Under the pieces are notes generated by a model. The model did no database searches. It was not told the DNA's origin and worked only from the letters and a program-made list of their open reading frames with translations. Source: Stackebrandtia nassauensis DSM 44728 (GTDB taxonomy: Bacteria > Actinomycetota > Actinomycetes > Mycobacteriales > Micromonosporaceae). Taken from it: DNA of 64,000 bases. Positions 36,181-61,143 of the stretch are shown here, piece by piece. The position numbers were made by a program, and so were the translations under genes. Numbering within the stretch: position 1 is the first letter of the stretch; each line of letters begins with the position of its first letter. The stretch spans positions 3,596,001 to 3,660,000 of the forward strand of contig NC_013947.1 in NCBI RefSeq assembly GCF_000024545.1, in the 5' to 3' direction.

Positions 36181-36681
36181 ATGGTGCTCAACCTGTTGAT
36201 CGGTGTTCATATCTCGGCCGGACTGCTCGCCGTGGGCTGCGGAGCGGCGGCGATGGTGGTGCGCAAACAACCCGTTCGCCACCCCTGGCTGGGACGCACC
36301 TACCTGACCGCGCTCGTGGGCCTGGTGGTGACAGCGATCGGGCTCGTCACTTTTCGACCGCACACCGCTTACCTGTTGCTCCTGGGAACCGCGGCCTTGG
36401 CCACTGCCGGGATCGGCTTCGCAGCACGCCGCATGAGGTGGCGAGGATGGCTTCGCCATCATCTGGCCGCCATGGGGACGTCGTACATCCTCATGCTCAC
36501 AGCATTCTATGTAGACAACGGTCCACGCTTGCCCCTGTGGAACCTGCTGCCGCCACTGATGTTCTGGTTCCTGCCCGCACTGGTCGGACTCCCGTTGCTG
36601 TTGTGGGCGTTGGCACGTCACCGCATCCACCCCAACAATCGGCGTCCGCTACGACGGTCACCCGAGGGCGGGACCACCTAA
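36181..36681 (+). CDS. DUF2306-like membrane protein
   Basis: A 166-residue integral membrane protein with four or five hydrophobic segments and the phrase HPWLGRTYLTALVGLVVTAIGL, reminiscent of DUF2306 proteins. A pair of His in WLRHHLAAMG lies before another segment and could bind haem, as proposed for related proteins. The function is unknown. It follows acr3 by 39 nt and may be read from the same transcript. Its stop overlaps the convergent hydrogenase protease by 4 nt. Confidence 0.75.
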   Translation: MVLNLLIGVHISAGLLAVGCGAAAMVVRKQPVRHPWLGRTYLTALVGLVVTAIGLVTFRPHTAYLLLLGTAALATAGIGFAARRMRWRGWLRHHLAAMGTSYILMLTAFYVDNGPRLPLWNLLPPLMFWFLPALVGLPLLLWALARHRIHPNNRRPLRRSPEGGTT

Positions 36682-37253
36682 CCGGCCAGACCCCTTGCCA
36701 CGCCAGGCGCAAGGGCGGGCACGCTTCTCAGATAACTCGATGCGGCACTGGCCCCGCCCCAATGCCTCACTGATCGACCGTGACGGAGCCGCCAAACGTG
36801 GCACGCCGATAATCTGCTGGCTGCCAGCGTGGTCACACGGTCAATCACGGCCGGGATGGCCTCGGCGACATCGGCGCTGATCCCTACGCCCTGGCTCAGG
36901 TCGGCGGCTTCGACGGCGAGGATGACGAGTCGCTGTGGCAACCGGTCCAGCACCCGTGCCAGTTCGAAGGTGTCGCCGATATCGATGGCGTGGGAACTGG
37001 CGGTTCCCGTGCCATGGCTCGGAGGGAGGGTGGTCAGTTCATGGATCGTGCCGGGTCGGGCGGTGCCGCTTCGTACGGCGTCGACCACCACCGCCAGTTC
37101 GGCACCGTCCCACAGGTCGATCAGATCGGTGGGTTCGCCGTCGCTTGTGGCCAGTCGTGCCGTGATTCCGGTCGTTTCGAGCCGGTGGATGACCTCGTAC
37201 CCGACGCCGTCGTCGCGACGGTAGGGGTTGCCGATACCGATGACGACGATCAT
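36678..37253 (-). CDS. Hydrogenase maturation protease (HyaD/HybD family)
   Basis: A 191-residue endopeptidase of the type that removes the C-terminal tail of [NiFe]-hydrogenase large subunits after nickel insertion. The nickel-sensing motif GIGNPYRRDDGVGYEVI includes Asp at about residue 15; AVVVDAVRSG supplies the second Asp and SSHAIDIGDTFELARVL the His. It is longer than usual (about 155-165) because of an Arg-rich C-terminal tail. It starts 2 nt after a universal stress protein gene in one operon. No hydrogenase structural gene is in the window. Confidence 0.88.
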   Translation of the reverse strand: MIVVIGIGNPYRRDDGVGYEVIHRLETTGITARLATSDGEPTDLIDLWDGAELAVVVDAVRSGTARPGTIHELTTLPPSHGTGTASSHAIDIGDTFELARVLDRLPQRLVILAVEAADLSQGVGISADVAEAIPAVIDRVTTLAASRLSACHVWRLRHGRSVRHWGGASAASSYLRSVPALAPGVARGLAG

Positions 37254-37255
37254 GT

Positions 37256-38125
37256 TCAGTGATGTTGCCCGGAAGCGCGAACAATCGCCAGCGGACATTT
37301 GCTGGTGTGGGCCAGGGCGAAAGCCGTGGATCCCAGTAGCCGGGCGCGTAGTTCTCCGCGCATCCGGGAGCCGACCACGAGCAGCGAGGCCTTCGCGGAC
37401 GCGTCGACCAAGGTGGTGGTGACGTCGGTGGACTGGATTGGGAGGGCCGTGGTCTCCACCGTCGGGTACGTGTCCTGCCACTGGCTCATCCAGCTCTCCA
37501 GTAGACGTTCGGTGCGTTGTCGATCGTCTTCTTCCGCTGTCGCGTCGTTCGGCGCGGCGGACCACGCGTGAACGGCGTGCAGTGGCACCTGACGCGCCGC
37601 CGCCTCGGCGAACGCGAAACCGAGGGCCTCCCGTGAGATCGGGGTGCCGTCGACGCCGACCACCACCGTGCTGACGATGTCCTCCTCACCCCGTACCAGC
37701 ATGACCGGGCAGCGGGCGCGGGTCACCACATCCACGGCAACTGACCCCAGCATCAGCTCCAGGACGCCGCCGCGGCCTCTGGCTCCCACCGTGATCAGGG
37801 CGGCGTGTTCGGACTCGTCGACGAGCGCGACGGCGGCGCTGCCGTCGATGACTTCGCCCGAAACCCTCAGGTCGGGATGCGCGCGGCGAGCCATCGTGAC
37901 GGCTTCGTCGACGATGCGCCGGTTTTCCGCGTCGGGTGGCAGCGGGGCGGTGTAGATGCCTCCCGAGGCGGGATCGCCGTAGTAGGCCGACCAGGTTCGC
38001 GCGTGCACGACCCGAAGCGGCAGGCCTCGCAGCAGTGCCTCACCGGCGGCGAATCGGACGGTGCGTGAACCGGCGATGGAACCGTCGACACCGACGACAA
38101 CGGGATTGACTTTCGTCGTGTTCAT
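37256..38125 (-). CDS. Two-domain universal stress protein (USP A)
   Basis: A 289-residue tandem UspA protein. Each half has the Rossmann-like ATP-binding pattern: VGARGRGGVLELMLGSVA near residue 120 and VGSRMRGELRARLLGSTA near 262. Such proteins bind ATP and help growth arrest under hypoxia or starvation in mycobacteria. The ATG at 38125 follows AGGAGG. A DosR-like box lies 60 nt upstream. It is clearly a paralogue of the USP at 58286 and is cotranscribed with the hydrogenase protease. Confidence 0.94.
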   Translation of the reverse strand: MNTTKVNPVVVGVDGSIAGSRTVRFAAGEALLRGLPLRVVHARTWSAYYGDPASGGIYTAPLPPDAENRRIVDEAVTMARRAHPDLRVSGEVIDGSAAVALVDESEHAALITVGARGRGGVLELMLGSVAVDVVTRARCPVMLVRGEEDIVSTVVVGVDGTPISREALGFAFAEAAARQVPLHAVHAWSAAPNDATAEEDDRQRTERLLESWMSQWQDTYPTVETTALPIQSTDVTTTLVDASAKASLLVVGSRMRGELRARLLGSTAFALAHTSKCPLAIVRASGQHH

Positions 38126-38184
38126 CCTTTCAGCCTCCTCATGTGACCGGCGGAACACAGGGTGTCGGTGCGCCCTCGGTAGAC

Positions 38185-38199
38185 GGGACTTTCGGCCCC
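38185..38199. promoter_or_regulatory. DosR-like box before USP A
   Basis: GGGACTTTCGGCCCC, an imperfect palindrome close to the DosR consensus (GGGACTWWAGTCCC core), lies 60 nt upstream of the USP A start codon. Confidence 0.6.
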
Positions 38200-38218
38200 A
38201 GCCAAGGGACATCCGACC

Positions 38219-38701
38219 TCATGACGGTCCCGGCGGGGTTCGCGTGGATTCGCCGGTCGCTTCGATCAGGCGCCGCCGGGTCGCCTGGAGCCGGTCGGCG
38301 ACAACTTGGGCGAAGCGGCGGGCCAGTTCGTAACCGAGTTCGGGATCGGCGGTACATAGGCGCCGCACCTCGGCGGCGTTGAACTCCACCGCGAAGACAT
38401 CGTCTTCGGCTACGGCGCCGAAGTGCCAGGTGAACGGTGGTGCCATCCACGACCATCCCAGTACGCTGCCGGGTTCCAGCGTTTCGATTTCCTGGGTTCT
38501 CTTTCCTGGGGACTCATAGTCGAGCACGACGTGTCCCTGGCGGATCAGCCAGAACCGGTCGGCGGGAGTGTTTTCCCGGAAGATGCGGGCGCCACTGTGG
38601 AACATGGCGCGGTGAGCGCACATGGACAGTCGTGTCAGCTGCTCTTTTGGCAGGTCACCGGTGAACGGGTGGCCGCGCAGCAGGTCGTAGGCGGTTTCCA
38701 T
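38219..38701 (-). CDS. Cyclic-nucleotide-binding-fold protein without HTH
   Basis: A 160-residue protein consisting of one cNMP-binding beta-roll (about 15-125) and a C-terminal helix, with no DNA-binding domain. The phosphate-binding cassette is degenerate: where cAMP binders have G-E-x-A/G-L and R-x-A, this has PGSVLGWSWMAPPFTWHF. Ligand binding is therefore doubtful or altered. The ATG follows AGGAGG. It sits between hsp20 and USP A on the same strand, in a stress gene array, and may act as a small sensor or scaffold. Confidence 0.85.
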   Translation of the reverse strand: METAYDLLRGHPFTGDLPKEQLTRLSMCAHRAMFHSGARIFRENTPADRFWLIRQGHVVLDYESPGKRTQEIETLEPGSVLGWSWMAPPFTWHFGAVAEDDVFAVEFNAAEVRRLCTADPELGYELARRFAQVVADRLQATRRRLIEATGESTRTPPGPS

Positions 38702-38828: not shown

Positions 38829-39224
38829 CTACGAGCCCTTGACCGGTATCACCACGCTGGTGTCGGAGCCCGCTTTCAGGGGCACCGTGATGTCGAGGAC
38901 TCCCCGGACGTATTCGGCTTTGATGTTGTCGGTGTCGGCGTTGCCCGGAAGCCGGACGGCGCGATACATCGATCCATACCGGAATTCGGAGTGGGTCTCG
39001 TCGTGGGTCCCGGATTGGCGTTCGGCCCGCAGGCTCAGGACGTCGTGGTCAACCGAGACGTGGATGTCCTTGTTGGGATCCATTCCCGGCAATTCGGCGC
39101 GGACCCGGTATTCCTGGTCGCTCTGCTGGATCGCGATGCGGATTGGGGGCGTGTGGTGCGACCCGGGGCTCATCCCGAAAAAGTCAGCGAGATCGCCGAA
39201 GATTCGTGGAGTCAGCGAGGTCAT
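38829..39224 (-). CDS. Hsp20 / alpha-crystallin small heat shock protein
   Basis: A 131-residue small heat shock protein, an ATP-independent holdase. The alpha-crystallin domain spans about residues 30-120 (YRVRAELPGMDPNKDIHVSV and VRGVLDITVPLKAG). The C-terminal I-x-V anchoring motif appears as VVIPV. It is similar in type to mycobacterial HspX, a hallmark of the dormancy response. The ATG follows an AGGAAGGA site. It lies 66 nt downstream of the DoxX gene on the same strand. Confidence 0.93.
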   Translation of the reverse strand: MTSLTPRIFGDLADFFGMSPGSHHTPPIRIAIQQSDQEYRVRAELPGMDPNKDIHVSVDHDVLSLRAERQSGTHDETHSEFRYGSMYRAVRLPGNADTDNIKAEYVRGVLDITVPLKAGSDTSVVIPVKGS

Positions 39225-39290: not shown

Positions 39291-39839
39291 TCAACGCAGG
39301 ACCGGCCAGGATTGGACGAGGCCGGTGCGCGACCATGGTTTGCCGAATCCCCAGGTGTCTCCGGCGTTGGCGTAGGCCAGGCCGATGACGAGGATGGCCA
39401 TGATGATGTGGTCGTCGATGAGGGGGTTGTTGGCCGGTGGCAGGGCCACGCTCCACATCAGCACCAGTTGGATGGCCGCGGCGATGGCGGCGATGCGCAT
39501 GCCGATGCCCAGGATCATGGCGATGCCGATTCCGGCCAGGCCGAGCATGAACAGCCAGTCGGCCCACGCGGCTCCGGCGATGGAGGTGTAGAAGCCCTTG
39601 AACGGTCCGGAGGCGGAGTTGGCCAGGAAGCCCTGGGTGGGGCGGCCGCCGTTGAGCCAGGAGTGGTCGGGTGGGGTGGCGTAGCCGAGTCCGAAGGTCT
39701 TGTCGAGGAACGCCCACAGGAAGATCCACCCGACACCGATACGGGCGACCGCCCACACCCGACGACCATGGTGAGTCGAGGGGTCGGGCACGGATTCGTC
39801 AACGGGCACCTCATGTCTCGGGCGTTGATGCGTCGTCAT
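39291..39839 (-). CDS. DoxX-like membrane protein
   Basis: A 182-residue DoxX-type membrane protein with four hydrophobic segments (VARIGVGWIFLWAFLDKTFG near residue 35, then WADWLFMLGLAGIGIAMILG and two more). DoxX relatives contribute to redox balance or quinone-linked processes, but the role here is not known. The start at 39839 has GAGGAGA upstream and removes 16 spurious codons. It heads the DoxX-hsp20 unit and shares a near-perfect DosR-like palindrome with the divergent GH130 gene. Confidence 0.85.
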   Translation of the reverse strand: MTTHQRPRHEVPVDESVPDPSTHHGRRVWAVARIGVGWIFLWAFLDKTFGLGYATPPDHSWLNGGRPTQGFLANSASGPFKGFYTSIAGAAWADWLFMLGLAGIGIAMILGIGMRIAAIAAAIQLVLMWSVALPPANNPLIDDHIIMAILVIGLAYANAGDTWGFGKPWSRTGLVQSWPVLR

Positions 39840-39958: not shown

Positions 39959-39975
39959 AGGGACCAATCGTCCCT
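39959..39975. promoter_or_regulatory. DosR-like palindrome between DoxX and GH130 genes
   Basis: AGGGAC-CAATC-GTCCCT is the best palindrome of the set, with exact 6-bp arms. It lies 120 nt from the DoxX start and 113 nt from the GH130 start, so it could serve both. A weaker GGGGGTCTTTCGCC follows at 39979. Confidence 0.7.
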
Positions 39976-40088: not shown

Positions 40089-41111
40089 ATGTCCCGCACA
40101 CCGCCCGACGCGATCTTCGGCGACCGTGAGGGTTGCCAACTCCGCGAACCCTTCGACAAACCATGGGGGGCCACGGCTCTGCCGTCGTTCACCCGGCATC
40201 CCGGCAATCCCGTGCTGACGGCGGCCGACTGGCCGACTCCGGTGGCCACGATCGGCAACCCCGGTGCCGCCCATGACGGCCACGGCATCGTGTTGCTGTG
40301 CGGGGTCGAGGATCGACGAGGTATGACGACGCTGAACATCGCGCGCAGCCGTGACGGAGTCGGTGACTGGAGCATCGAGTCCCAGCCGTTGATCGAGCCC
40401 CGCAGCTGCGGCTCCCGGCACTGGTCGGGGGTCCGGGACGGACGACTGACCTGGGTGCCCGAACTGAACGGCTGGGTCATCGCGTTCACCGCCTTCGGAC
40501 ACAGCGGGACCGGTGTCGCCCTGGCGTTTACCTCGGATTTCAAGGACGTGGTGCCGCTCGGTGTCGCCGCGCCCCCCGACGACCAGAGCGGTGTGCTGCT
40601 GCCGCGCCGCGCCGACGGTGAATTCGTTCTCCTGCACCGGCCGATGTCGCCAATGTCGCTGCGTGCCGACGTGTGGTCGTCACGGTCACCGGACCTGTTG
40701 CGGTGGCACGGCTCCAGGCCGGTTTTGCCCGCGAGGCCGACCCCGTGGTGGGACTCGGCCGGTGTCGGTGTGGGGCCGCCGCCCATCGAGACCGACCATG
40801 GCTGGCTGACCGTCTACTCCGGCGACAAACGCGTCGACGATCGCACCGTGCGCCGCGTCGGTATGGCGCTGCTGGACCGCGATGACCCGACGCGGGTGAC
40901 GCATCGCGGCGACGAATGGGTCCTCGAGGCGTCCGAACCCTATGAGACGGGCAGGTCGCCAACCCGTTCGGTGACGCCCAGCGGGGCCGTGATCGATGTC
41001 GAGTCCAGGGCGCTGCGGCTGTACTACGGTGTCGCGGATTCGGGTGTCTGTCTGGCCACAGCGGACCTGGACGAGGTTCTCACCTACCTGCTCAACCAAC
41101 CAGTCGGCTGA
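40089..41111 (+). CDS. GH130-like protein with degenerate catalytic motif
   Basis: A 340-residue five-bladed propeller of glycoside hydrolase family 130 type. It resembles the GH130 protein at 42471 along most of its length (NPVLTAADWPTPVATIGNPGA, LLCGVEDRRG and the end LRLYYGVADSGVCLATADLDEVL). The family motif E-D-P-R reads V-R-D-G-R here (residues 115-119): Asp and the last Arg are kept, while Glu and Pro are lost, and CRVED has become CGVED. Activity is uncertain, and it may be a binding or altered-specificity paralogue. Its end overlaps the convergent GT4 gene by 20 nt. Confidence 0.82.
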   Translation: MSRTPPDAIFGDREGCQLREPFDKPWGATALPSFTRHPGNPVLTAADWPTPVATIGNPGAAHDGHGIVLLCGVEDRRGMTTLNIARSRDGVGDWSIESQPLIEPRSCGSRHWSGVRDGRLTWVPELNGWVIAFTAFGHSGTGVALAFTSDFKDVVPLGVAAPPDDQSGVLLPRRADGEFVLLHRPMSPMSLRADVWSSRSPDLLRWHGSRPVLPARPTPWWDSAGVGVGPPPIETDHGWLTVYSGDKRVDDRTVRRVGMALLDRDDPTRVTHRGDEWVLEASEPYETGRSPTRSVTPSGAVIDVESRALRLYYGVADSGVCLATADLDEVLTYLLNQPVG

Positions 41112-42342
41112 CGTGGTCGCCAACACCAACGGTTGACAGCGTCCCGTTCCGATCCCCGCCACACGAACGGATCCGCTCCACGAGTGTCTCGGCCACCCTC
41201 GGCCACATCAGACGGTTGCCGACACGCCGGGCCACGACTCGCGTGCACGACAGGGCGACGGGATCGGTCAGCAGTTCGGTCACGGCGGCCCCGAACCCGG
41301 CGGGGTCGTCTCCGGACACCAGTCTGCCCGCTCCGCTGGACAACAGGTCCCGGGCGTAGTGGTAGTCGGTGGACACCGTCGGGCAGCCGGCCGCGACGGC
41401 GAAGGTCAGTGTTCCCGAGGAGATCTGTTCCTGGCTGCGATACGGGGTCAGGTACACGTCGGTGTTGGCCAGCAGCGCCGACAGTTCGGCCGGGGACAGG
41501 TACCGGTCGACGAAGTCGACGTTGTCCTCCAACCCCATGCGGCAGGCCAGGTCCCGCAGTCGCGACAGGTACGCGGTGCCGTGGGCGGCCAGTTCCCCGG
41601 GATGGGTGGCACCGGCGATGACGTAGCGAACGTCGGGAAGCCTCTCCACGACGGTGGCCAGGCCGTCGATCGCGGTCTCGAGGGACTTGCCCGGGCCCAG
41701 GAGCCCGAACGTGGACAGCAGTGGCCCGGTTCGGGACTTCGCCAGGATCCGTGCCAGATCCGGTCCCAGCCGCGACTCCTCGATCGACGTGCGAAGGATC
41801 GGGGGCGCACCGTGCGGGATGACCACCAGTTTCGACGGTTGGGCCAATCCGGCGTCCACCCCCAGGTTCACTCCGGTGGGGGTCAGCATCGTGATGAGGG
41901 CGGCGTCGCGGCACAGGCGGTGCAGCACCGTCGCCTGGGCCCGGGTGGGACAGGACAACATCGTGTGCGGAGTGACCATATAGGGCAGTCCGAGTCTGGT
42001 GAGCTCGGCGCTCAGTTCCAGAACGTGGGCTCCGGCCGTCCCGCCGAAGATCCCGTATTCGTGCTCGATGAGCACGATGTCGGCGCCCTGGTCCCGCATC
42101 CGGCGGGCCGCGGCGCGGTATGTCGCCGGTGCGTCGGCGGAGATCGTCGCGGTGACCTCGTCGGGATAGGTCAGCCCGTCGGTGTCCATCGCGCAGACAC
42201 GGACGTCGATGTCCTGGTCGAGCCCCAGCAGGGCGTCGCGCAGATCGGTGGTGAAGTTGGCCAACCCGCATCGTCGGGGCGGATAGGTGGACACGATGTG
42301 GATGTTCAGTTCTCGCCGGGAACGGCCCCTGGTGTTGGGCAT
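41092..42342 (-). CDS. GT4-family glycosyltransferase
   Basis: A 416-residue GT-B glycosyltransferase of family 4. The N-terminal domain starts with IHIVSTYPPRRCGLANFTTDL, and the C-terminal donor-binding domain includes FGLLGPGKSLETAIDGLA (about residue 228) and the E-x7-E-like region YRSQEQISSGTLTFAVAAGCPTV (about 320). It probably transfers a hexose, and mannose would fit the GH130 neighbours. The start at 42342 has AGGGG upstream. The C-terminus overlaps the convergent GH130-like gene. Confidence 0.88.
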   Translation of the reverse strand: MPNTRGRSRRELNIHIVSTYPPRRCGLANFTTDLRDALLGLDQDIDVRVCAMDTDGLTYPDEVTATISADAPATYRAAARRMRDQGADIVLIEHEYGIFGGTAGAHVLELSAELTRLGLPYMVTPHTMLSCPTRAQATVLHRLCRDAALITMLTPTGVNLGVDAGLAQPSKLVVIPHGAPPILRTSIEESRLGPDLARILAKSRTGPLLSTFGLLGPGKSLETAIDGLATVVERLPDVRYVIAGATHPGELAAHGTAYLSRLRDLACRMGLEDNVDFVDRYLSPAELSALLANTDVYLTPYRSQEQISSGTLTFAVAAGCPTVSTDYHYARDLLSSGAGRLVSGDDPAGFGAAVTELLTDPVALSCTRVVARRVGNRLMWPRVAETLVERIRSCGGDRNGTLSTVGVGDHVSRLVG

Positions 42343-42409: not shown

Positions 42410-42424
42410 GGGACTATCGCTGAC
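42410..42424. promoter_or_regulatory. DosR-like half-site before the GT4 gene
   Basis: GGGACTATCGCTGAC lies 67 nt upstream of the GT4 start. The left arm fits the other boxes while the right arm is poor, so this is the weakest member of the set. Confidence 0.35.
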
Positions 42425-42470: not shown

Positions 42471-43430
42471 TTACAACCCATTGTCGACGGGTTCGCAGTC
42501 CCACAAGAAGTCCAGCACTTCGTCAAGTTTGGCGGTGGCCAGGCCGATGCTGGTGTCGGCGGCGCCGTAGTAGAGGTCCAGATCGCCGGTGTCGAGGCGG
42601 TGGACCATGCCGGTCGGGAACACCACGTTGGGAACGTCGCCCTGTCGTTCGTACCGGGTACTCGGGCTCAGCACCCATTGCGTCGAGCGGCGCAGTACGC
42701 GTTCGGGCCGCTCCAGATCCAGCAGTGCCAGTCCGGCCCGGTAGACCTGGGTTCCGGCTCCGGCCTTGACACCGTGATAGACGAGCAGCCAACCTCGCGA
42801 GGTGGCGATGGGCGGCGGTCCGGCGCCGATGCGGACCGCGTCCCAGGCGGGGCCGCGCCGGGAACGCAGCACCGGCTCGGCGATCGTCCATGAATCCAAA
42901 CTGGATGAACGCGACAGCCAGATGTCGGCGGTGTCGGAGGCCGCGGAGACCGGACGGTGCAGCAACACGAAATCTCCGTCCACCCGACGGGGGAACAGCG
43001 AGGCGTTCTTGTTCTCCGGCGGCAGGATCACGCCTTTGGGGGTCAGAGTGCGGAAATCCTCGGTCAGGGCCAGCGCGACGGCGGGACCGGCGGGGCCGTA
43101 GACGGTGTAGGTGATGGCCCAGCAGCCCAGCTCCTCCAACCTGGTCACCCGGGGATCCTCGGCCCCCCAGCACGACGCCGGGTCGTCCGGGTCGGCGTCG
43201 ATGAGCGGCTGGGGGTCGATGCTCCAGTCGGTTCGACCGTTTCGGCTGCGCGCGACCGTCAGATGCGAGACACCCTGACGGTCCTCCACCCGGCACAACA
43301 GGACGGTCTCCTGCTCGTGACTGGTGGCGCCGGGGTTGAACACGGTGTTGATGGGATACGGCCAGTCGGACGCGGTCAGCACCGGCCCCTCGGCATGACG
43401 ACGGAAGAGACAGGACTCGGACTGCACCAT
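42471..43430 (-). CDS. GH130 family beta-mannoside phosphorylase/hydrolase
   Basis: A 319-residue GH130 protein. Family members phosphorolyse or hydrolyse beta-mannosides. The sequence has FNPGAT (31-36), LLCRVEDRQGVSHLTVARS and the intact WGAEDPRVTRLEE motif (E91, D92, P93, R94), so the catalytic Asp is present. The substrate subgroup cannot be assigned by eye. The ATG at 43430 follows GAAGGA. It is 29 nt downstream of the alpha-barrel gene and likely shares its transcript with a USP gene. Confidence 0.9.
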   Translation of the reverse strand: MVQSESCLFRRHAEGPVLTASDWPYPINTVFNPGATSHEQETVLLCRVEDRQGVSHLTVARSRNGRTDWSIDPQPLIDADPDDPASCWGAEDPRVTRLEELGCWAITYTVYGPAGPAVALALTEDFRTLTPKGVILPPENKNASLFPRRVDGDFVLLHRPVSAASDTADIWLSRSSSLDSWTIAEPVLRSRRGPAWDAVRIGAGPPPIATSRGWLLVYHGVKAGAGTQVYRAGLALLDLERPERVLRRSTQWVLSPSTRYERQGDVPNVVFPTGMVHRLDTGDLDLYYGAADTSIGLATAKLDEVLDFLWDCEPVDNGL

Positions 43431-43459
43431 TGTGGTCCTTCGTGAGGCGAGGTACGGGT

Positions 43460-54088: not shown

Positions 54089-56649
54089 CTGGTCCTCCAT
54101 CGGTGATTGATGACTGTCTTGTGTGCCGCGTCGGCCGCCAGCACCATGGGCACCGCTGCCACCGCCAGGGTCCAGCCCAAAAGGGACGGCCAGCCGCCTC
54201 CGAGCAGCTGCGCCAGCGGTGGCAGTCCCAGGAACACGCCCAGCAGGACGATCTCGATCCCCACGGCCACCAGCAACAGCCGGTTGGTCGTCAGAGCGAT
54301 CCGGAACGCGGGGCGTGAGACGCTGCGGCAGGCGAAGGCGTTGGCCAGCTGTCCCAGGACGATCGCGGCGAAGGCCGTGCCCGAGGCGATGTGCAGCAGC
54401 GGCGCGGGTACGTCGCTTCCGGGCAGCCAGCCTCCCGCCAGCAGCACGACGGTGAACGCCGTCAGCGAGGCGAGCACCTCGGCGGGCCCCAGCACGCCGA
54501 AAGCCCGGATCAGGACGCCGCGGTTGATGAGGGCACCGGTGCGGGCACCGGTGGTCATGGTGCGGGGGTTGGGGGGTTCGGCGCCCAGCGCCAGTGCGGG
54601 CAACAGGTCGGTGCCGATGTCGAGGGCGAGAATCTGCAGGACGCCGATGGCCAGCGGAAACGACCCGCCGCTGAGCGCCCACACGACGAACGGCGCCAGT
54701 TCGGCGACGTTGTCGGTGAGGTGATACGTCAGAAACCGCCTGATGTTGACGAATGTGGCGCGTCCTCTTTCGACCGCCGCGACGATGGTGGCGAAGTGGT
54801 CGTCCAGCAGCACCAGATCGGCGGCCTCCCGGGCGATGTCGCTGCCCGAGGCACCCATGGCGATGCCGATGTCGGCGGTGCGCAGCGCGGGGGCGTCGTT
54901 GACGCCGTCGCCGGTCATGGCCACGATGTGGCCACTGTTCTGCAGGGCGCGGGCGATGCGCAGCTTGTCCTCCGGGGTCACGCGTGCGACCACCACCCCG
55001 TCGCGATCCAGCAGTTCGGCCAGCGCGGCCTCGTCGCCGGGCAGCTCCGCGCCCGTGATCACCAGGGAACCGTGATCCAGCAGGCCCACTCGCCGAGCCA
55101 CGGCGCTGGCGGTCGCGGGGTGGTCCCCGGTGACCACGGTCAGCCGGATACCGGCCCGACGGCACGCGGCGATCGCGTCGGCGACGTCGGGGCGGGGAGG
55201 GTCGGCCAGGCCCGCCACCCCCAGCAGGGTCAGGTCGCGTTCGTCGGCCTCGGCGCCCTGCCCCATCGCGGACGCGGTTCGGGCGGCAACGGCCAGCACC
55301 CGCAGGCCGGAGCGGGCGAAGTCGGCGGCGGCCTCGGCGGCGGATCCGGTGTCCCGGCATCGGGAGAACACGGCCTCGGGCGCCCCCTTCACATACAGCG
55401 TGTCCTCCACCAATGTGGATGACATGAGACGAGCGCTGTCGAAGGCGTAGCGGTGCTTCTCGGGTTCAGCGGCTTCTCTCGCCGCTACGTCGATGCCGCA
55501 ACGCAAGGCCAGTACGTGAAAGGCGACCTCCATCGGGTCGCCGTGCGGTGTGGCGTGACCGTCGTGTTCCACCAGGCGGCCCGACGAGGCCCGCACCGCG
55601 GCGTAGGCGAGCGCTTCGACGGCCTCCCGCGGCCCGTCGACGTCGCCTCGTGGTTCGTAGCCCTCGCCGGTGACCGAGGCGAGGCCCCGCGGTGTCCACA
55701 CTCGCGTAACCGTCATCTGGTTGCGGGTCAGGGTTCCGGTCTTGTCGGTGCAGATGTAGGTCACCGAGCCGAGGGTCTCCACCGACTCCAGCCGCTTGAC
55801 GAGCGCGTTCTTGTCCGCCATGGCTCGCGCCCCCCACGCCAGCGACAACGTCACGGTCGGCAGCAGTCCCTCCGGCACCAGCGCCACCGTCACGCCCAGG
55901 GCGAAGACGAACCCGACGGCCGGGTCGCTGCCCAGCAGCAGTGAGATCCCGAAGAACATCGCGCCCACGGCCACGGCCACCACGGCGATGACGGTCACGA
56001 CCCGGTTGAGCCGCACCGCCAGCGGGCTCGGGGGACGGTGCGTCTGCCGGGTCAGCATGGTGATCTGCGCCAGCCGGGTCCGCACGCCGGTCGCCGACAC
56101 CCGCGCGGCGGCCGCGCCCTCCACCGCGAAGGTGCCCGCGTACACCGTCGCGTCGGTCGTCACCCGCCGCGCGACCCCCTCGCCGGTCAACATGGACTCG
56201 TCGACGGCGATCTCGCCGCCGACGACACGCAGGTCCGCGCTGATGCGGTCCCCCGCTTCCAGCAAGACCAGGTCGCCGGGCACCAGCCGCGCGGCGGGAA
56301 TCGTGAGCCGGTGTCCGTCGCGGATGACGGTGGCGTTGGCGGGCATCAGATCCCGCAACCGTTCGGCGGCCCGGTCGGCGCGGTACTCCTGAATGTGGGC
56401 GAATCCGGCGTTGACCACCACGACGATGACGATGGCCACCGCCAGTTGCGGCATGCCGATCAGAAAGGCCAGTCCGGCCGCCGCCCACAGCAGCAGCGCG
56501 AAGAAGTGCGTCAACTGCTTCGCCAGCGCCCACCAGCGGCTGGCACGGCGGGCGACGGGAATCTCGTTGGGTCCCCGCGAGGCCAACAGCTTCGCGGCTT
56601 GGGTGCGCGACAAGCCGGTTTCGGAGGTCACGAGGCGAACCGGGACCAT
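54085..56649 (-). CDS. P-type cation ATPase (CtpF/P2 type)
   Basis: An 854-residue P-type ATPase with cation-ATPase N- and C-domains. The phosphorylation motif DKTGTLT has Asp302, the pump motif VPEGLLPTVTLSL lies at 258-270, and TGDGVNDAPALRTADIGIAMG marks the P domain. The A-domain loop reads LTGEG instead of LTGES. It is closest in type to mycobacterial CtpF, a DosR-regulon Ca/Mn-type pump; the ion is not certain. The start at 56649 has GGGAGA upstream and overlaps the preceding gene by 22 nt. Confidence 0.92.
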   Translation of the reverse strand: MVPVRLVTSETGLSRTQAAKLLASRGPNEIPVARRASRWWALAKQLTHFFALLLWAAAGLAFLIGMPQLAVAIVIVVVVNAGFAHIQEYRADRAAERLRDLMPANATVIRDGHRLTIPAARLVPGDLVLLEAGDRISADLRVVGGEIAVDESMLTGEGVARRVTTDATVYAGTFAVEGAAAARVSATGVRTRLAQITMLTRQTHRPPSPLAVRLNRVVTVIAVVAVAVGAMFFGISLLLGSDPAVGFVFALGVTVALVPEGLLPTVTLSLAWGARAMADKNALVKRLESVETLGSVTYICTDKTGTLTRNQMTVTRVWTPRGLASVTGEGYEPRGDVDGPREAVEALAYAAVRASSGRLVEHDGHATPHGDPMEVAFHVLALRCGIDVAAREAAEPEKHRYAFDSARLMSSTLVEDTLYVKGAPEAVFSRCRDTGSAAEAAADFARSGLRVLAVAARTASAMGQGAEADERDLTLLGVAGLADPPRPDVADAIAACRRAGIRLTVVTGDHPATASAVARRVGLLDHGSLVITGAELPGDEAALAELLDRDGVVVARVTPEDKLRIARALQNSGHIVAMTGDGVNDAPALRTADIGIAMGASGSDIAREAADLVLLDDHFATIVAAVERGRATFVNIRRFLTYHLTDNVAELAPFVVWALSGGSFPLAIGVLQILALDIGTDLLPALALGAEPPNPRTMTTGARTGALINRGVLIRAFGVLGPAEVLASLTAFTVVLLAGGWLPGSDVPAPLLHIASGTAFAAIVLGQLANAFACRSVSRPAFRIALTTNRLLLVAVGIEIVLLGVFLGLPPLAQLLGGGWPSLLGWTLAVAAVPMVLAADAAHKTVINHRWRTR

Positions 56650-57206
56650 TGCGTCTCCCATGAACGCATCCGGATTCGGTCGAGGCGCCGTCGCACCAGC
56701 CAGCACACCCCGAATCCGAGTTCGACGACGCCGATGTAGGCGAAGACGGCCGCGAAGACGGCCCGTCCGCTCGCCTGTTGCCGCGTCAACGGCGGCTCGG
56801 CGAGTTGATCGTCGCCGTCAAGCCAGATCGTGACCGTGTCGCCAGCCCTGGCGCCCGCCGGGGCTTTGACGCGTCCGCTGTCCTCGATGCCGTGACGTGT
56901 CTGCCAGCGCGCCTCACCCCAGCGTTGCTGGTACGAGGACGTTGCCACGGCGGGCTGGATGTCATGCGTCAACACCGCCGTTACCTGGTAGTGCGTCAGG
57001 GCTTGAGATTCCATGGTGGCCAGACCGTCCTCGTGGATCCTCATCCCCAGCCATACGCACACCGGCAGCAGTGCCGCCACGATGAGAATGACGAAGCGGG
57101 CGGCCATAGCCTCGACGCGATCCACTTCGCGCCGCAACGGGTTGTCGTCGAGGCTCAACAGCCGCGCGAATCTCGCGGCATCGGTGACCAAGCGCCAACG
57201 GATCAT
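56628..57206 (-). CDS. Rv1733c-like two-helix membrane protein
   Basis: A 192-residue membrane protein with two transmembrane helices (about 35-55 and 148-168) around an extracytoplasmic domain. NPLRREVDRVEAMAARF before the first helix and RVKAPAGARAGDTVTIWLDGDDQLAEPPLT before the second are the family pattern of mycobacterial Rv1733c, a dormancy-regulon antigen of unknown function. It sits between USP D (11-nt gap) and the P-type ATPase (22-nt overlap), suggesting a partner role for the pump. Confidence 0.85.
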   Translation of the reverse strand: MIRWRLVTDAARFARLLSLDDNPLRREVDRVEAMAARFVILIVAALLPVCVWLGMRIHEDGLATMESQALTHYQVTAVLTHDIQPAVATSSYQQRWGEARWQTRHGIEDSGRVKAPAGARAGDTVTIWLDGDDQLAEPPLTRQQASGRAVFAAVFAYIGVVELGFGVCWLVRRRLDRIRMRSWETQWSRFAS

Positions 57207-57217: not shown

Positions 57218-58099
57218 TCAGGATGCGCCCGACGAGTGGACGACGGCCACGGGCGCGTCGGCGTGATGCACCATCGCCTGCGTGGTGGAGCCCAGCAGCA
57301 GGCCGGTGAAACCGCCGTGCCCTCGCGAACCCAACACCACGAGGCAGGCCCCCGCGGATTTCTCCTGCAGCAGTTGGCGGGCGTCGACGCGTTCACACAC
57401 CCGCTCCACCGGCACGTCGGGGTACTTCTGCGGCCACCCGGCCAAAGCCTCGGCCAGCACGCGTTTCTCGCTGTCGGCGCGTTCCTCGATGGAGTAGACC
57501 TGCGGAAGCACGTCGCCGGATTCGGTGGCGACCGGGTGGGTCCAGGCGTGAACGGCGATCAGCCGGGCTTCGCGCAGCGATGCCTCCTCGAAGGCGAACC
57601 GCAGTGCGGCCTGGGACAGCGGGGAGGCGTCCACGCCGACGACGATGCGATCGGGTTCCTGGCTCCTCACCGGCGCCGGGCCGCGGACCACCACGACCGG
57701 GCAGCGCGAGTAGGCGGTGACCTGCGTCGAGGTCGAGCCCAGCAGCAGCGAGGTGAATCTGCCTCGGCCACGGCTGCCAACGACCAACAGTTCGCCGTCC
57801 TCGGACGCCTCGACCAGGTCGATGCTGGCCGACATGCCACCGACGACCTTGCCGCTGACCTCCAGGTCGGGGTTCAGGTCGCGGATTCTGGCGACTTCCT
57901 TGTCGACGAGATCGCCCACGCTGGCACGCGAGGCTTCGTGCCTGCTGGAGTCGAGGTCCGTCGCCAACGGGGACAACACCAGGAACGAGTGGATGATCAG
58001 CAACCGACGCTGCCGCAGTCGGGCTTCCTCGGCCGCCCAGTCGACCGCGACCTGGCTGTGTGGTGAACCGTCGAATCCGACGATGATCGGAGCCGCCAT
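57218..58099 (-). CDS. Two-domain universal stress protein (USP D)
   Basis: A 293-residue tandem UspA protein. ATP-binding motifs are VGSRGRGRFTSLLLGSTS near residue 118 and LGSRGHGGFTGLLLGSTTQAM near residue 263. The ATG at 58099 has GGAGGA seven bases upstream and is preferred over the ATG five codons earlier, which lies before that site. It is the first gene of the nine-gene unit that ends with hypE. A DosR-like element lies about 120 nt upstream. Confidence 0.94.
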   Translation of the reverse strand: MAAPIIVGFDGSPHSQVAVDWAAEEARLRQRRLLIIHSFLVLSPLATDLDSSRHEASRASVGDLVDKEVARIRDLNPDLEVSGKVVGGMSASIDLVEASEDGELLVVGSRGRGRFTSLLLGSTSTQVTAYSRCPVVVVRGPAPVRSQEPDRIVVGVDASPLSQAALRFAFEEASLREARLIAVHAWTHPVATESGDVLPQVYSIEERADSEKRVLAEALAGWPQKYPDVPVERVCERVDARQLLQEKSAGACLVVLGSRGHGGFTGLLLGSTTQAMVHHADAPVAVVHSSGAS

Positions 58100-58218
58100 C
58101 TGTCTGTCCTCCATTGTGTCTCGGATGTCCGGTATGAGGTGCCATGCCCTGCCGGACGCGGTATTCAGCTTCCCGGCTCGCCGGGATCCGACGCAGGGTC
58201 CAGATACTTGAACCGGCA

Positions 58219-58233
58219 GGGACCAAAGTCGTT
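58219..58233. promoter_or_regulatory. DosR-like box before the nine-gene operon
   Basis: GGGACCAAAGTCGTT matches the DosR core GGGAC-Y-WW-AGTC over its first twelve positions. It lies 120 nt upstream of USP D, in the 186-nt gap behind the next gene. Confidence 0.6.
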
Positions 58234-58285: not shown

Positions 58286-59155
58286 CTATGTCGCGGAGCG
58301 AACGATCACCACCGGGCACTGGCTGGTGTGGACCATCGCGTATCCGGTCGAACCCAATAGCCGGGACCGCAGGGCGCCGCGCATCCGGGACCCGAGGACC
58401 ACCAGGCTCGCCTTCGCCGACTCCTCCCCCAGTGCCCGCGCGGGGTTGGCCTGATGCACCGGCACGGTCTCGACGACGACATCACCGAAGTTCCCGCGAT
58501 CATCGGACAGCCATTCGTCCAGGACCGATCGCGCGCGTTGCCGTCCGTCGGCTTCCGACTCGGCGGTGTCGACGAGGTTGGTCGAGTGGTGCCAGGCGTG
58601 GACGGCCCGCAGCGGCACACTCCGGGCCCGCGCCTCGGCGAACGCGAAGTCGATCGCGGCCTTGGACGTGCCCCGACCGTCCACACCCACCACGACCGGA
58701 CCGTTCCTGGTGACCTCACCGCGCACGACCAGCACCGGGCAGGTCGCCCGCGCGGCCACGTCCATCGCGGTCGAGCCGAGCGCCCGTCTCGCCAGTCCGC
58801 CGTGCCCGTGGGATCCGACGACCACGAGGGTGGCGTGACGGGACTCGTCTATCAGGACGACGGCGGGTCCGCCGTCGATCACGTGGCCGGTGACGTTCAC
58901 GTCGGGGTGAACTCCACGGACCAGGTCGCGGGCATTGTCGACGATCAGCCGGGCCGTCGGTTCGTCCTCAATGGGCGCGACGGGTGGGGTGAGCAGCGGC
59001 GGATTGCCGGTGTAGGTGGGCCACGCGCGGGCGTGGACGATACGAAGTGGACTTTGACGGTCGGCGGCGTATGCGGCGGCCAGGATGACGGTGCTCGGGC
59101 TGTCGTCCGAACCGTCGACACCGACGACCACTGGGGCGGGCGAGTTCTCGTTCAT
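58286..59155 (-). CDS. Two-domain universal stress protein (USP E)
   Basis: A 289-residue tandem UspA protein, the closest paralogue of USP A at 37256: both share PVVVGVDGS, RIVHARAW/RVVHARTW and the unusual second-domain motif GSRMRGALRSRLLGST. The first-domain motif is VGSHGHGGLARRALGSTA. The ATG at 59155 has GGAG two to three bases upstream, which is closer than usual. It is monocistronic by spacing (186 nt to USP D), with its own DosR-like box 59 nt upstream. Confidence 0.93.
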   Translation of the reverse strand: MNENSPAPVVVGVDGSDDSPSTVILAAAYAADRQSPLRIVHARAWPTYTGNPPLLTPPVAPIEDEPTARLIVDNARDLVRGVHPDVNVTGHVIDGGPAVVLIDESRHATLVVVGSHGHGGLARRALGSTAMDVAARATCPVLVVRGEVTRNGPVVVGVDGRGTSKAAIDFAFAEARARSVPLRAVHAWHHSTNLVDTAESEADGRQRARSVLDEWLSDDRGNFGDVVVETVPVHQANPARALGEESAKASLVVLGSRMRGALRSRLLGSTGYAMVHTSQCPVVIVRSAT

Positions 59156-59213: not shown

Positions 59214-59228
59214 GGGACTTTGAGCTCT
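59214..59228. promoter_or_regulatory. DosR-like box before USP E
   Basis: GGGACTTTGAGCTCT lies 59 nt upstream of the USP E start, the same distance as the boxes before USP A and USP B. The right arm is weak. Confidence 0.5.
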
Positions 59229-59258: not shown

Positions 59259-59879
59259 CTAGACCGACGACCGCGCGGTCGTCGCCGACAACAGCCACCA
59301 CAGGACCGCACCGGTGACCGCGGCCATCGCCGCCGCCATCAGTGTCGCGGCGAACATCCCGATCACGACGACCGCACCGGTCGGCTGACCTTCATGCCAT
59401 AGTGGAGTCGACACCGTGAGGAACACCGCGAGTCCCGCCACCCAGGCCGCCGCCGTGCCGGTGATCCACCAGCCCGCCCTGGCGAGTCGTCCGCGCAGCA
59501 GCCACCATTGCGCGGTTCCGATCGACATCAGTCCCGTCACGGCCAGCACCACCGTGACACCGGCCGTCGCGGGCAGCGGCAACACGGCCTCGGACCACAG
59601 TTCGGCGATGACGAGGCCGCACACCCAGGCGATCCCGGCGCCGAGCGCGGTGGCTGTCGGCCAGTGCCGGGTCCCCGGCAACACCCGCCGCAGCACCCGC
59701 GCCTGGGCGAGGCCGAGGATGTATCCCTCGGTGCAACCAGCCGCCAGCATCAGTGCCGTCTGTACCGGCGCCGGGGCCGAGGGAGTGATCGCGTAGGTCG
59801 CGGAGGGCACCGCGAAACCGGCGCACTCCCCGAGGGTGACCCAGCCGAACCAGCTGAGCCACAACCGATCACGGCCCAT
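59259..59879 (-). CDS. Hypothetical multi-pass membrane protein
   Basis: A 206-residue protein with about six hydrophobic segments and few charged residues, of no family I recognise. It begins MGRDRLWLSWFGWVTLGECAGFA, and the segments include a Gly/Ala-rich LALGAGIAWVCGLVIAELW-like stretch. The ATG at 59879 overlaps the end of the DUF4389 gene by 11 nt, so it is probably translated from the same message. It may be a transporter-like or structural membrane protein of the stress island. Confidence 0.72.
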   Translation of the reverse strand: MGRDRLWLSWFGWVTLGECAGFAVPSATYAITPSAPAPVQTALMLAAGCTEGYILGLAQARVLRRVLPGTRHWPTATALGAGIAWVCGLVIAELWSEAVLPLPATAGVTVVLAVTGLMSIGTAQWWLLRGRLARAGWWITGTAAAWVAGLAVFLTVSTPLWHEGQPTGAVVVIGMFAATLMAAAMAAVTGAVLWWLLSATTARSSV

Positions 59880-60543
59880 GATGTTCCACAATCGTGGGTG
59901 CGTCGCCCTGGTCGAGGCGGAACGGTGGATAGACGTCGGTCATGAGCGCGACATAGGCCAGCACCCGGTATCCCCAGCGGGCGAGGCCGAGCAGCAGGTC
60001 GTACAGGCCGCTGAGGCGGCGTCCGGTGAACAGCAGCCCGAAACCGAGGATGAGCACGGCGGCGCCGAGGACACCGATCGACACGACGGCCCGTTCCCGG
60101 GTCGGCGCGTCATAGTCGCCCCAGACCGGGGCGGCCACGAACGCGTTGAGCAGCACCAGGTGGGGTATCGCCAGCAGCCAGTGCACCAGCGGACGCCAGC
60201 GCGCGATCCGCTCGGGGCGCGCGATGTCCAGTCGCGCCGGATACGACGGGTCGTCGGCCAGGGTGAAGGGCGGATAGCGGTCGGTTCCCAGCGCGGCGTA
60301 GCCGTAGTAGTTCACCCGCCAGTGCCACCGCAGGACGCCGACGTTGAAGTCGAAGATCCAGCGTGGATAGACGCCGGTGATCAACACCGCGACATACGCG
60401 ACGATCGTCAGGACCACGAACGCCGTCCACAGGAACAACAGGACGAGGTAGTGCGGGATCAACAGGATCCACTTCACCAGCCACAACCACCGGCTGAGGG
60501 ATTCGCCGGAGCGGGCGGTGAGTGTCAGCGTCTGTCCGTTCAT
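59869..60543 (-). CDS. DUF4389 membrane protein
   Basis: A 224-residue DUF4389 protein. The characteristic motif, a hydrophobic helix followed by RWxxRVxxYxxLxTDxYPPF, occurs twice: GVLRWHWRVNYYGYAALGTDRYPPF near residue 70 and GLARWGYRVLAYVALMTDVYPPF near residue 190, so the protein is an internal repeat with about four membrane helices. The function is unknown. The ATG follows GAGGAG. It is followed by the overlapping multi-pass membrane gene and preceded by a strong hairpin. Confidence 0.87.
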   Translation of the reverse strand: MNGQTLTLTARSGESLSRWLWLVKWILLIPHYLVLLFLWTAFVVLTIVAYVAVLITGVYPRWIFDFNVGVLRWHWRVNYYGYAALGTDRYPPFTLADDPSYPARLDIARPERIARWRPLVHWLLAIPHLVLLNAFVAAPVWGDYDAPTRERAVVSIGVLGAAVLILGFGLLFTGRRLSGLYDLLLGLARWGYRVLAYVALMTDVYPPFRLDQGDAPTIVEHHGP

Positions 60544-60587
60544 GGATTGTCTCCTCTTTCCTTCTCGGCCGACGGCCGATGTCGAAG

Positions 60588-60626
60588 CCGGACCCCCGCG
60601 CACCGGTGGCCGGGGCGGGGGTCCGG
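60588..60626 (-). terminator. 12-bp hairpin terminator
   Basis: CCGGACCCCCGC (60588-60599) pairs exactly with GCGGGGGTCCGG (60615-60626) around a 15-nt loop, just after the stop of the minus-strand gene at 60643 and before DUF4389. It probably ends or attenuates the upstream message. Confidence 0.7.
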
Positions 60627-60642
60627 TGGAGTCAGGTGAGAT

Positions 60643-61044
60643 TCATCCGACCGGGTGCATCGTCTTGCCCGGTGTCGTTCGGCTCAGGCTCCCGATCAGG
60701 TGCTGGACGGTGGTAGCCGCCCACAGCAGACCGATGGCACCGAGGAAGAACGCGAGGGCGATTCCGTTGCCGGTGAACAGCGCGATGAGGAACGCGATGC
60801 CCGCCACCGCACCGAGGACCTGGCCGATCTGTTTGGCGGGAGTTGCCTTGGCCGATTCCGTCGCGCCGACGGCGCACGCGGAAACACCGAGGATCAGTGC
60901 CGCGACCGCGAGGCCGCGCACACCACCCACCACGGGAAGACCGGCACCGGCGAGATACGCGGCGTAGAGGCCGAACGTGAACAACACGATCAGCGTCGCG
61001 ACACCGTCTCGCCAGGTCAGACGTCCGAGTGTCTTCGTCATCAT
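60643..61044 (-). CDS. Small hypothetical membrane protein
   Basis: A 133-residue protein with about four hydrophobic segments (WRDGVATLIVLFTFGLYAAYL, LAVAALILGVSACAVG, VLGAVAGIAFLIALF, ALAFFLGAIGLLWAATTV). I do not recognise the family. The ATG follows GAGGAGGTGA. It is the first gene of the unit that continues with DUF4389 across a hairpin, and it is divergent from the V-type ATPase genes. A DosR-like box lies 85 nt upstream. Confidence 0.75.
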   Translation of the reverse strand: MMTKTLGRLTWRDGVATLIVLFTFGLYAAYLAGAGLPVVGGVRGLAVAALILGVSACAVGATESAKATPAKQIGQVLGAVAGIAFLIALFTGNGIALAFFLGAIGLLWAATTVQHLIGSLSRTTPGKTMHPVG

Positions 61045-61128
61045 GCTCACCTCCTCTCCCCTTTACCGTTTCGCGCGAGCGGGGACGCCGCATGGGTTCA
61101 AGGTCCTCAGGATTGGCGCGCCGTACCC

Positions 61129-61143
61129 GGGACCTTGTGCCCC
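61129..61143. promoter_or_regulatory. DosR-like box between the membrane gene and V-ATPase operon
   Basis: GGGACCTTGTGCCCC is a fair palindrome (GGG..CCC arms) 85 nt from the minus-strand start at 61044 and 143 nt from the plus-strand start at 61286. It could serve either unit. Confidence 0.5.

What the first reader, a model, noticed from the sequence alone, without database searches (positions are those of the whole stretch)
36678..61143. A DosR-type dormancy regulon clustered in one island with recurrent GGGAC(C/T)WW boxes
Seven intergenic elements (38185, 39959, 42410, 45410, 58219, 59214, 61129) share GGGAC followed by C/T and A/T-rich centres, close to the mycobacterial DosR consensus. 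In three universal stress genes the box lies 59-60 nt upstream of the start codon. The gene content mirrors the mycobacterial DosR regulon (USPs, Hsp20, Rv1733c-like, CtpF-like). In mycobacteria these genes are scattered; here they are contiguous. GGGAC is common in GC-rich DNA, so position and content carry the argument, not the word alone.
Basis: partly seen in the sequence, partly recalled or inferred. Interest (0 to 1): 0.85.

Follow-up and report, generated by a model that had tools for sequence, protein, structure and literature searches.

The report
Low-oxygen survival island with spare ATPase
A soil actinomycete keeps its predicted low-oxygen survival genes together in one stretch of about 45,000 bases that also holds a hydrogen-handling enzyme and a second kind of ATP-driven ion pump, and at least one relative has the same combination with matching switch sites, so it looks like a larger version of the dormancy programme known from mycobacteria and Streptomyces.

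Summary
The seven elements are real and denser than this genome's background (8 in 24.5 kb; about 2 expected). In three Usp genes the GTCCC end lies 58-59 nt before the start codon. Only two of the seven (38185, 39960) score as full boxes with a matrix from published OsdR sites; five are half-sites, and four of the seven sit in paralogous Usp promoters. Content is as claimed: Usp, Hsp20, Rv1733c family, P-type ATPase. Genome length (6,841,557 bp) points to Stackebrandtia nassauensis. It has one strong DevR match and a DevS/DosT-like kinase, about 362 kb away. The island continues past the window to about 81.5 kb: V/A-type ATPase, NiFe hydrogenase with three boxes upstream, two more Usp. In Virgisporangium about 67 kb holds devR-devS, Usp, Hsp20, P-type ATPase, V-ATPase, GH130, glycosyltransferase and hydrogenase; 23 boxes in the 80 kb scanned (control 4). 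Streptomyces V-ATPase promoters carry a box in 27 of 31 loci (control 1); other genera 7 of 37 (control 4). Clustering is not new (S. coelicolor SCO0167-0219; M. smegmatis msmeg_3927-3955). The possibly new part is a V-ATPase as a DevR/OsdR target. Hypoxic induction is untested.

The parts
36678..37200 (-). HycI-like hydrogenase maturation protease (ORF to 37565; true start uncertain)
   Evidence: Pfam HycI 35 bits
37256..38125 (-). Universal stress protein Usp1 (two Usp domains)
   Evidence: Pfam Usp; start by position and RBS
38184..38199 (.). DevR/OsdR box CGGGACTTTCGGCCCC; the GTCCC end is 59 nt before the Usp1 start
   Evidence: OsdR matrix 11.8; spacing
38219..38701 (-). cNMP-binding domain protein
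   Evidence: Pfam; best upstream matrix score 1.6
38829..39224 (-). Hsp20 / alpha-crystallin protein
   Evidence: Pfam HSP20; best upstream matrix score 0.4
39291..39839 (-). DoxX-like membrane protein
   Evidence: Pfam DoxX just under cut-off
39960..39975 (.). DevR/OsdR box GGGACCAATCGTCCCT between the divergent DoxX-like and GH130 genes
   Evidence: matrix 11.4
40089..41111 (+). GH130 family protein
   Evidence: Pfam
41092..42342 (-). Glycosyltransferase
   Evidence: Pfam
42410..42417 (+). Half-site GGGACTAT, 67 nt before the glycosyltransferase start; a separate weak matrix site (8.4) lies at 42442
42471..43706 (-). GH130 family protein, second copy
   Evidence: Pfam
44512..45351 (-). Universal stress protein Usp2
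   Evidence: Pfam
45410..45417 (+). Half-site GGGACCTT, 58 nt before the Usp2 start
   Evidence: best upstream matrix score 5.9
45785..50488 (-). hypE, hypD, hypC, hypF hydrogenase maturation genes
   Evidence: Pfam AIRS, HypD, HupF_HypC, HypF domains
50485..51375 (-). Universal stress protein Usp3
   Evidence: Pfam
51392..54085 (-). GNAT acetyltransferase fused to NDP-forming acyl-CoA synthetase (ORF to 55360; true start probably near 54085)
   Evidence: Pfam domains from residue about 450 of the long ORF
54085..56706 (-). CtpF-like type II P-type cation ATPase
   Evidence: Pfam; best NCBIfam model TIGR01522, below its cut-off
56628..57206 (-). Rv1733c family membrane protein
   Evidence: NF050032, 147.5 bits against cut-off 80
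57218..58114 (-). Universal stress protein Usp4
   Evidence: Pfam
58219..58226 (+). Half-site GGGACCAA, 104 nt before the Usp4 start
   Evidence: matrix 3.3
58286..59155 (-). Universal stress protein Usp5
   Evidence: Pfam
59214..59221 (+). Half-site GGGACTTT, 58 nt before the Usp5 start
   Evidence: matrix 1.1
59869..60603 (-). DUF4389 membrane protein
   Evidence: Pfam
60643..61044 (-). Small protein of unknown family, divergent from the V-ATPase operon
   Evidence: no Pfam or NCBIfam match
61129..61206 (.). Divergent promoter region: half-site at 61129 and weak box AGGGTCGTTGGGCCGT at 61191 (79 nt before the first V-ATPase gene)
   Evidence: matrix 8.1
61286..61732 (+). First V/A-ATPase gene, coiled-coil subunit (E/G-like)
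   Evidence: weak similarity to V-type subunit E, E 0.0013, among other coiled-coil families; position in the operon
61732..62652 (+). V/A-ATPase subunit C-like
   Evidence: weak vATP-synt_AC39 match, E 0.003, below cut-off
62321..64000 (+). V/A-ATPase subunit I (ORF continues to 64048; true start probably nearer 62650); c, A and B follow beyond the window
   Evidence: Pfam V_ATPase_I, ATP-synt_C, ATP-synt_ab

Best explanation
The window holds most of a low-oxygen (dormancy) regulon island of Stackebrandtia nassauensis, controlled by its DevR/DosR orthologue. Proposed mechanism: when oxygen leaves the heme of the DevS/DosT-like kinase (C1:3267997-3269733), the kinase phosphorylates DevR (C1:3269736-3270404, convergent neighbour, about 362 kb from the island). 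DevR~P binds full boxes and, probably cooperatively, half-sites upstream of the Usp, DoxX/GH130, glycosyltransferase, V/A-ATPase and hydrogenase units and turns them on. The products protect dormant cells (Usp, Hsp20, Rv1733c-like, P-type ATPase), dispose of reductant through a NiFe hydrogenase matured by HypCDEF and HycI, and hold ion gradients with a V/A-type ATPase. Shown here: gene content, orthologous regulator and sensor sequences, box enrichment in island promoters, association in relatives. Inferred: heme and oxygen sensing, binding, induction, direction of the ATPase and of the hydrogenase, cooperativity at half-sites.
For: Regulator: best solved-structure match DevR 3c3w, E 6e-81, next VraR 1.4e-39, recognition helix almost identical; kinase GAF matches DosT and DevS, E 1.9e-46 and 2.8e-44. 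Boxes by a matrix from published sites: 7 of 20 island units (5 distinct promoters) at 8 or more against 7 of 216 background genes, Fisher 0.0009 for 5 of 18; the excess stays at cut-offs 6 to 11 (7 of 20 against 14 of 216 at 6; 3 of 20 against 3 of 216 at 11). Three boxes in 90 bp upstream of the likely hydB start, while 0 of 216 background genes have two. Content: 7 of the genome's 13 Usp genes (25 domain matches, grouped by me) lie in 45 kb. Relative G057 (Virgisporangium): devR-devS, ten Usp hits, Hsp20, P-type ATPase, V-ATPase, GH130, glycosyltransferase and hydrogenase within about 67 kb; 23 boxes of 10 or more in 80 kb against 4 with the reversed matrix, 14 against 0 upstream of called gene starts. 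Streptomyces V-ATPase promoters: box in 27 of 31 loci against 1 of 31 control, in 21 of those 27 at 86-122 nt before the first gene. M. smegmatis counterpart raised at low oxygen.
Against: Five of the seven listed elements are half-sites with low matrix scores; four of the seven are in paralogous Usp promoters. Thirteen of 20 island units have no box of 8 or more, among them Hsp20, cNMP, Rv1733c/P-type ATPase, hyp genes, DUF4389, acyl-CoA synthetase, Usp2 to Usp7. Over the whole 45 kb the matrix hits do not stand out: 11 against 8 reversed at 8 or more, 2 against 3 at 10 or more. The tight full-box pattern is not enriched genome-wide (11 places, control 19). Of the best Usp hit in each of 30 genomes, 2 promoters carry the half-site and one of these is the own gene; matrix 9 or more in 5 of 30 against 3 of 30. 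No box of 8 or more upstream of devR. Outside Streptomyces the V-ATPase promoter signal is not significant, 7 of 37 against 4 of 37. In G031 boxes of 9 or more do not exceed the control, 15 against 14. No expression data.
Confidence: 0.76

Rival explanations
1. The island is a stress island whose DevR control is only partial: a few units (Usp1, DoxX/GH130, hydrogenase, perhaps V-ATPase) are true DevR targets, and the GGGAC half-sites in Usp promoters are relics of gene duplication without function.
For: Usp promoters 38185, 45410, 58219 and 59214 resemble each other beyond the box; half-sites score low; outside the own genome only 1 of 29 family Usp promoters has the half-site.
Against: The box core is kept at 58-59 nt in three island promoters while the surroundings differ, and again at a second locus; half-site density is four times background.
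Confidence: 0.35
2. The recurrent element is the site of another regulator or a sigma-factor -35 element (for example an ECF-type GGAAC -35), not of DevR.
For: GGGAC resembles recalled ECF -35 elements; GC-rich genomes give many GGGAC words.
Against: For the minus-strand genes the element reads WWRGTCCC, the wrong orientation for such a -35; the two full boxes are palindromic and fit the published OsdR matrix.
Confidence: 0.08
3. Clustering without co-regulation: Usp, hydrogenase and V-ATPase genes sit together through shared horizontal transfer, and the boxes are a by-product of GC-rich sequence.
For: V-ATPase A subunit found in only 5 of 101 genomes searched including the own, and in none of four congeners; over the whole 45 kb matrix hits are close to the control.
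Against: Boxes exceed a composition-matched reversed matrix in the Virgisporangium island (23 against 4) and at Streptomyces V-ATPase promoters (27 against 1 of 31).
Confidence: 0.1

Closest known systems
OsdR (SCO0204/SCO0203) core regulon of Streptomyces coelicolor, SCO0167-SCO0219 (PMC5069765; abstract, section 7 and passages seen)
   Same: DevR orthologue, same kind of 16-nt palindromic box, Usp-rich genomic region clustered around the regulator
   Different: Nitrate reductase genes there; no occurrence of 'hydrogenase' or 'ATPase' in the main text; in S. nassauensis devR lies about 362 kb from the island
M. smegmatis DosR-type cluster msmeg_3932-3955 with Hyd3 msmeg_3931-3927 (PMC2799521; passages seen)
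   Same: Contiguous DosR-type cluster beside a NiFe hydrogenase plus M52 peptidase, raised at low oxygen
   Different: A devR copy lies inside the cluster; no V-ATPase in the passages seen
M. tuberculosis DosR/DevR dormancy regulon (recalled, apart from the structure matches)
   Same: Usp, Hsp20, Rv1733c family, CtpF-like ATPase; regulator and sensor orthologues
   Different: Spread over several loci (recalled); no hydrogenase 3b or V-ATPase in the regulon (recalled); boxes here are mostly degenerate
A/V-type ATP synthase genes in actinomycetes, e.g. Melissospora conviva (PMC12451618; passages seen)
   Same: An A/V-type ATPase noted in the paper's beehive actinomycete
   Different: No occurrence of DosR or 'universal stress' in its main text

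Membership tests
DosR/DevR regulon | DevR orthologue with conserved receiver and recognition helix | tested here: met
   3c3w match E 6e-81, recognition helix near-identical; one match at E 1e-50 or better in the own genome, matches in 76 of 101 genomes searched
DosR/DevR regulon | DevS/DosT-type heme GAF histidine kinase | tested here: met
   GAF matches DosT/DevS E 1.9e-46 / 2.8e-44; the His of the HP motif and the Tyr of LYL are kept in the alignment, that they matter for heme and oxygen is recalled; heme binding itself not testable
DosR/DevR regulon | Full DevR box upstream of target units | tested here: inconclusive
   7 of 20 units (5 distinct promoters) at matrix 8 or more against 7 of 216; the other 13 units have half-sites or nothing
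DosR/DevR regulon | Typical gene content (Usp, Hsp20, Rv1733c, CtpF-like) | tested here: met
DosR/DevR regulon | DevR-dependent induction by low oxygen, NO or CO | not testable with these tools
   needs RNA-seq and a deletion
OsdR core-regulon island | Regulator gene inside the island | tested here: not met
   devR is at C1:3269736-3270404, the island starts at C1:3632678; met in the Virgisporangium island
Group 3b NADPH-linked NiFe hydrogenase (sulfhydrogenase type) | Alpha, beta and delta subunits of that type | tested here: inconclusive
   best NCBIfam models are sulfhydrogenase HydA and HydB but below their cut-offs; small subunit by Pfam only
V/A-type ATPase | A, B, I and c subunits | tested here: met
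   Pfam; small stalk subunits only weakly recognised

The most novel reading that the evidence does not exclude
A V/A-type ATPase carried by many actinomycetes is a dormancy enzyme of the DevR/OsdR regulon: it is switched on at low oxygen with universal stress proteins and a fermentative hydrogenase, and lets otherwise aerobic actinomycetes keep an energised membrane without oxygen.
Probability: 0.5. Interest if true: 0.72.

Novelty: new variant of a known kind. Interest (0 to 1): 0.5.

Why it matters
How aerobic actinomycetes survive without oxygen is an old question. If the V/A-ATPase and the hydrogenase are members of the DevR/OsdR regulon, they become concrete, testable parts of that survival state in harmless soil bacteria, and the regulon would be a modular island to which lineages add energy-conserving machines. 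The DosR-type island by itself is expected from S. coelicolor and M. smegmatis.

Tried and rejected
Tight full-box search over the whole genome: 11 distinct places, one in the island, 19 for the control; not enriched. A looser two-mismatch pattern gave 3204 forward matches against 3843 for the control and says nothing. De novo palindrome counting in 68 V-ATPase upstream stretches was swamped by GC-rich sequence, with AGGGC-N6-GCCCT only 24th of the 25 shown. Matrix and k-mer counting upstream of the best Usp hit of 30 genomes found no shared box (matrix 9 or more: 5 of 30 against 3 of 30; one search was done with unoriented loci and is void). ECF sigma -35 reading rejected on orientation. That the Streptomyces V-ATPase result holds for other genera was not supported: 7 of 37 loci against 4 of 37 control. 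Of 80 V-ATPase loci, 12 were dropped from the promoter count because less than 4.8 kb lay upstream of subunit A. One search counted one acyl-CoA synthetase gene (L079) wrongly because it lies at the edge of its stretch; one search drops it (5 of 8 against 1 of 8 instead of 6 of 9 against 2 of 9), other counts unchanged. The 24-site bin at -1500 from the A-subunit start was not pursued; it may be conserved coding sequence. Literature on a V-type ATPase together with DosR, DevR, OsdR, Streptomyces or hypoxia: five searches; from the listings (15 of 24, none found, 4 of 4, 20 of 983 and 10 of 81 papers shown) I saw no paper making the link; subscription papers are mostly not in that library.
Full report
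What the genome is. The window is C1:3596001-3660000 of a single 6,841,557-bp contig. That length equals the published single-replicon genome of Stackebrandtia nassauensis LLR-40K-21T, an aerobic soil actinomycete (PMC3035245, abstract seen).

The observation. All seven elements exist, with 39959 read as 39960. GGGACYWW is enriched in the window against shuffles (3 of 100 reach 14) and in the named stretch against 400 kb of the same genome (33 hits, about 2.0 expected in 24.5 kb, 8 seen). Relative to the downstream minus-strand genes the element reads WWRGTCCC, and in Usp1, Usp2 and Usp5 it ends 59, 58 and 58 nt before the start codon. A Usp gene at a second locus repeats the 58-nt spacing (L008). 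The eighth hit, 56642, lies where the Rv1733c-family and P-type ATPase reading frames overlap.

How good the boxes are. I built a matrix from 25 S. coelicolor OsdR sites printed in Table 1 of PMC5069765; they are predictions there, some tested by EMSA. The control is the same matrix read backwards. At 8 or more it marks 7 of 20 island units, which are 5 distinct promoters: Usp1, DoxX-like/GH130, glycosyltransferase, the divergent 61-kb promoter of the V-ATPase operon, and hydB with three boxes. Background: 7 of 216 genes; control 1 of 20 and 6 of 216. Fisher P is 0.0009 for 5 of 18. The cut-off of 8 was chosen after a first scan; the excess also holds at 6 and 7 (7 of 20 against 14 and 10 of 216) and at 10 (3 of 20, two promoters, against 3 of 216). 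Counted over all 45 kb, genes included, hits are close to the control (11 against 8 at 8 or more; 2 against 3 at 10 or more), so the signal is in where the boxes lie, not in their number. Usp2, Usp4 and Usp5 have only half-sites, and the four Usp promoters (38185, 45410, 58219, 59214) are similar beyond the element, so they are not independent. A tight pattern over the whole genome is not enriched.

The regulator. The one DevR match of the genome at E 1e-50 or better is C1:3269739-3270404; its closest solved structure is M. tuberculosis DevR (E 6e-81; next VraR 1.4e-39), with the recognition helix nearly identical. It lies tail to tail with a 578-residue kinase whose GAF domain matches DosT and DevS. 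Both are about 362 kb from the island. No box of 8 or more lies upstream of devR.

The island is larger than the finding. Beyond the window (window-frame coordinates) follow V/A-ATPase c, A and B (64045-68312), an acyl-CoA synthetase, dehydrogenase E1 and E2 and a carrier protein (69074-74366), hydrogenase beta (longest reading frame 74725-76383), small (77093-77953) and large (77937-79235) subunits, and two more Usp genes (79255-81240). The island runs from about 36.7 to 81.5 kb. Seven of the genome's 13 Usp genes lie in it (25 domain matches, grouped by me). Two hydrogenase beta homologues align only from residue 190 or 198 of the long frame, so the true start is probably 75244 or 75271; then the boxes at 75079, 75120 and 75152 end 149 to 76 nt before 75244. 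If the long frame were real they would be coding.

Relatives. The V-ATPase A subunit is in 5 of 101 genomes searched including the own; a scan of named genomes kept 80 loci (208 stretches matched). Of 61 of those loci with at least 20 kb, 40 carry Usp genes and 45 at least one island module; 70 Usp genes lie in 1.57 Mb, where about 2 would be expected from the 11 Usp genes that PMC5069765 gives for S. coelicolor (its 8.7-Mb size is recalled). In 400 kb of own background the island proteins hit only one acyl-CoA synthetase. Upstream of the V-ATPase operon the matrix finds a box of 10 or more in 34 of 68 loci against 5 of 68: in Streptomyces 27 of 31 against 1 of 31, elsewhere 7 of 37 against 4 of 37. 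In 21 of the 27 Streptomyces loci the box lies 86-122 nt before the first gene, by a simple start-codon rule. The Streptomyces loci are related to each other, so they are not 31 independent cases. Boxes upstream of other modules in the 80 loci, against the control in the same stretches: Usp 17 of 61 against 3, acyl-CoA synthetase 5 of 8 against 1, Hsp20 5 of 11 against 2, P-type ATPase 4 of 18 against 0.

The closest whole-island relative is Virgisporangium: within about 67 kb lie devR-devS, ten Usp hits, DoxX, the acetyltransferase-synthetase fusion, Hsp20, P-type ATPase, the V-ATPase operon, GH130, glycosyltransferase and hydrogenase, with 23 boxes of 10 or more in the 80 kb scanned against 4, and 14 against 0 upstream of called gene starts. 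G031 has V-ATPase, Usp, P-type ATPase, cNMP and dehydrogenase genes on one 52-kb contig, but boxes of 9 or more do not exceed the control (15 against 14). G066 shows only the V-ATPase in the 20 kb held, and G006 the V-ATPase and a distant P-type ATPase on its 11-kb contig.

Known and new. A clustered OsdR core regulon is published for S. coelicolor (PMC5069765; abstract, section 7 and passages seen) and a contiguous DosR-type cluster with hydrogenase Hyd3 for M. smegmatis (PMC2799521; passages seen). A DevR-type island here is therefore a new member of a known kind. What I did not find in the listings of five searches is a V/A-type ATPase tied to this regulon. That link rests on the Streptomyces promoters and the Virgisporangium island; in the window itself the V-ATPase promoter has one weak box (8.1, 79 nt before the first gene) and one half-site.

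Mechanism. Most likely DevS senses loss of oxygen, DevR~P binds full boxes and, with help from neighbours, half-sites, and the island is induced together. M. tuberculosis DevR binds adjacent sites cooperatively and its sites vary in strength (PMC3029386, passages), which would let half-sites count. None of this has been measured in this organism.

Noticed in passing
C1:3887888-3891355 (L008:5888-9376): A second, smaller locus with three Usp genes and an acetyltransferase-acyl-CoA-synthetase fusion nearby; one Usp has AAAGTCCC 58 nt, another 156 nt, before the start.
   Followed up: partly
window-frame 69074-74366 (beyond the window): Acyl-CoA synthetase, dehydrogenase E1/E2 and carrier-protein operon that recurs near the V-ATPase (acyl-CoA synthetase in 18, E1 alpha in 17 of 80 loci) and often has an OsdR-type box there (5 of 8 against 1), but none here.
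   Followed up: partly
window 58165-58190: GC-rich inverted repeat in the leader of Usp4; the Usp4 upstream stretch scores 16.4 with the reversed control matrix; possibly a leader hairpin.
   Followed up: no
upstream of window Usp4 and Usp5 and of the Usp at C1:2919434: A shared CCCTGCGTCG word in three Usp promoters, function unknown.
   Followed up: no
C1:3267997-3270404 (L005:7997-10404): devS and devR lie tail to tail rather than in one operon, and no OsdR-type box of 8 or more lies before devR.
   Followed up: partly
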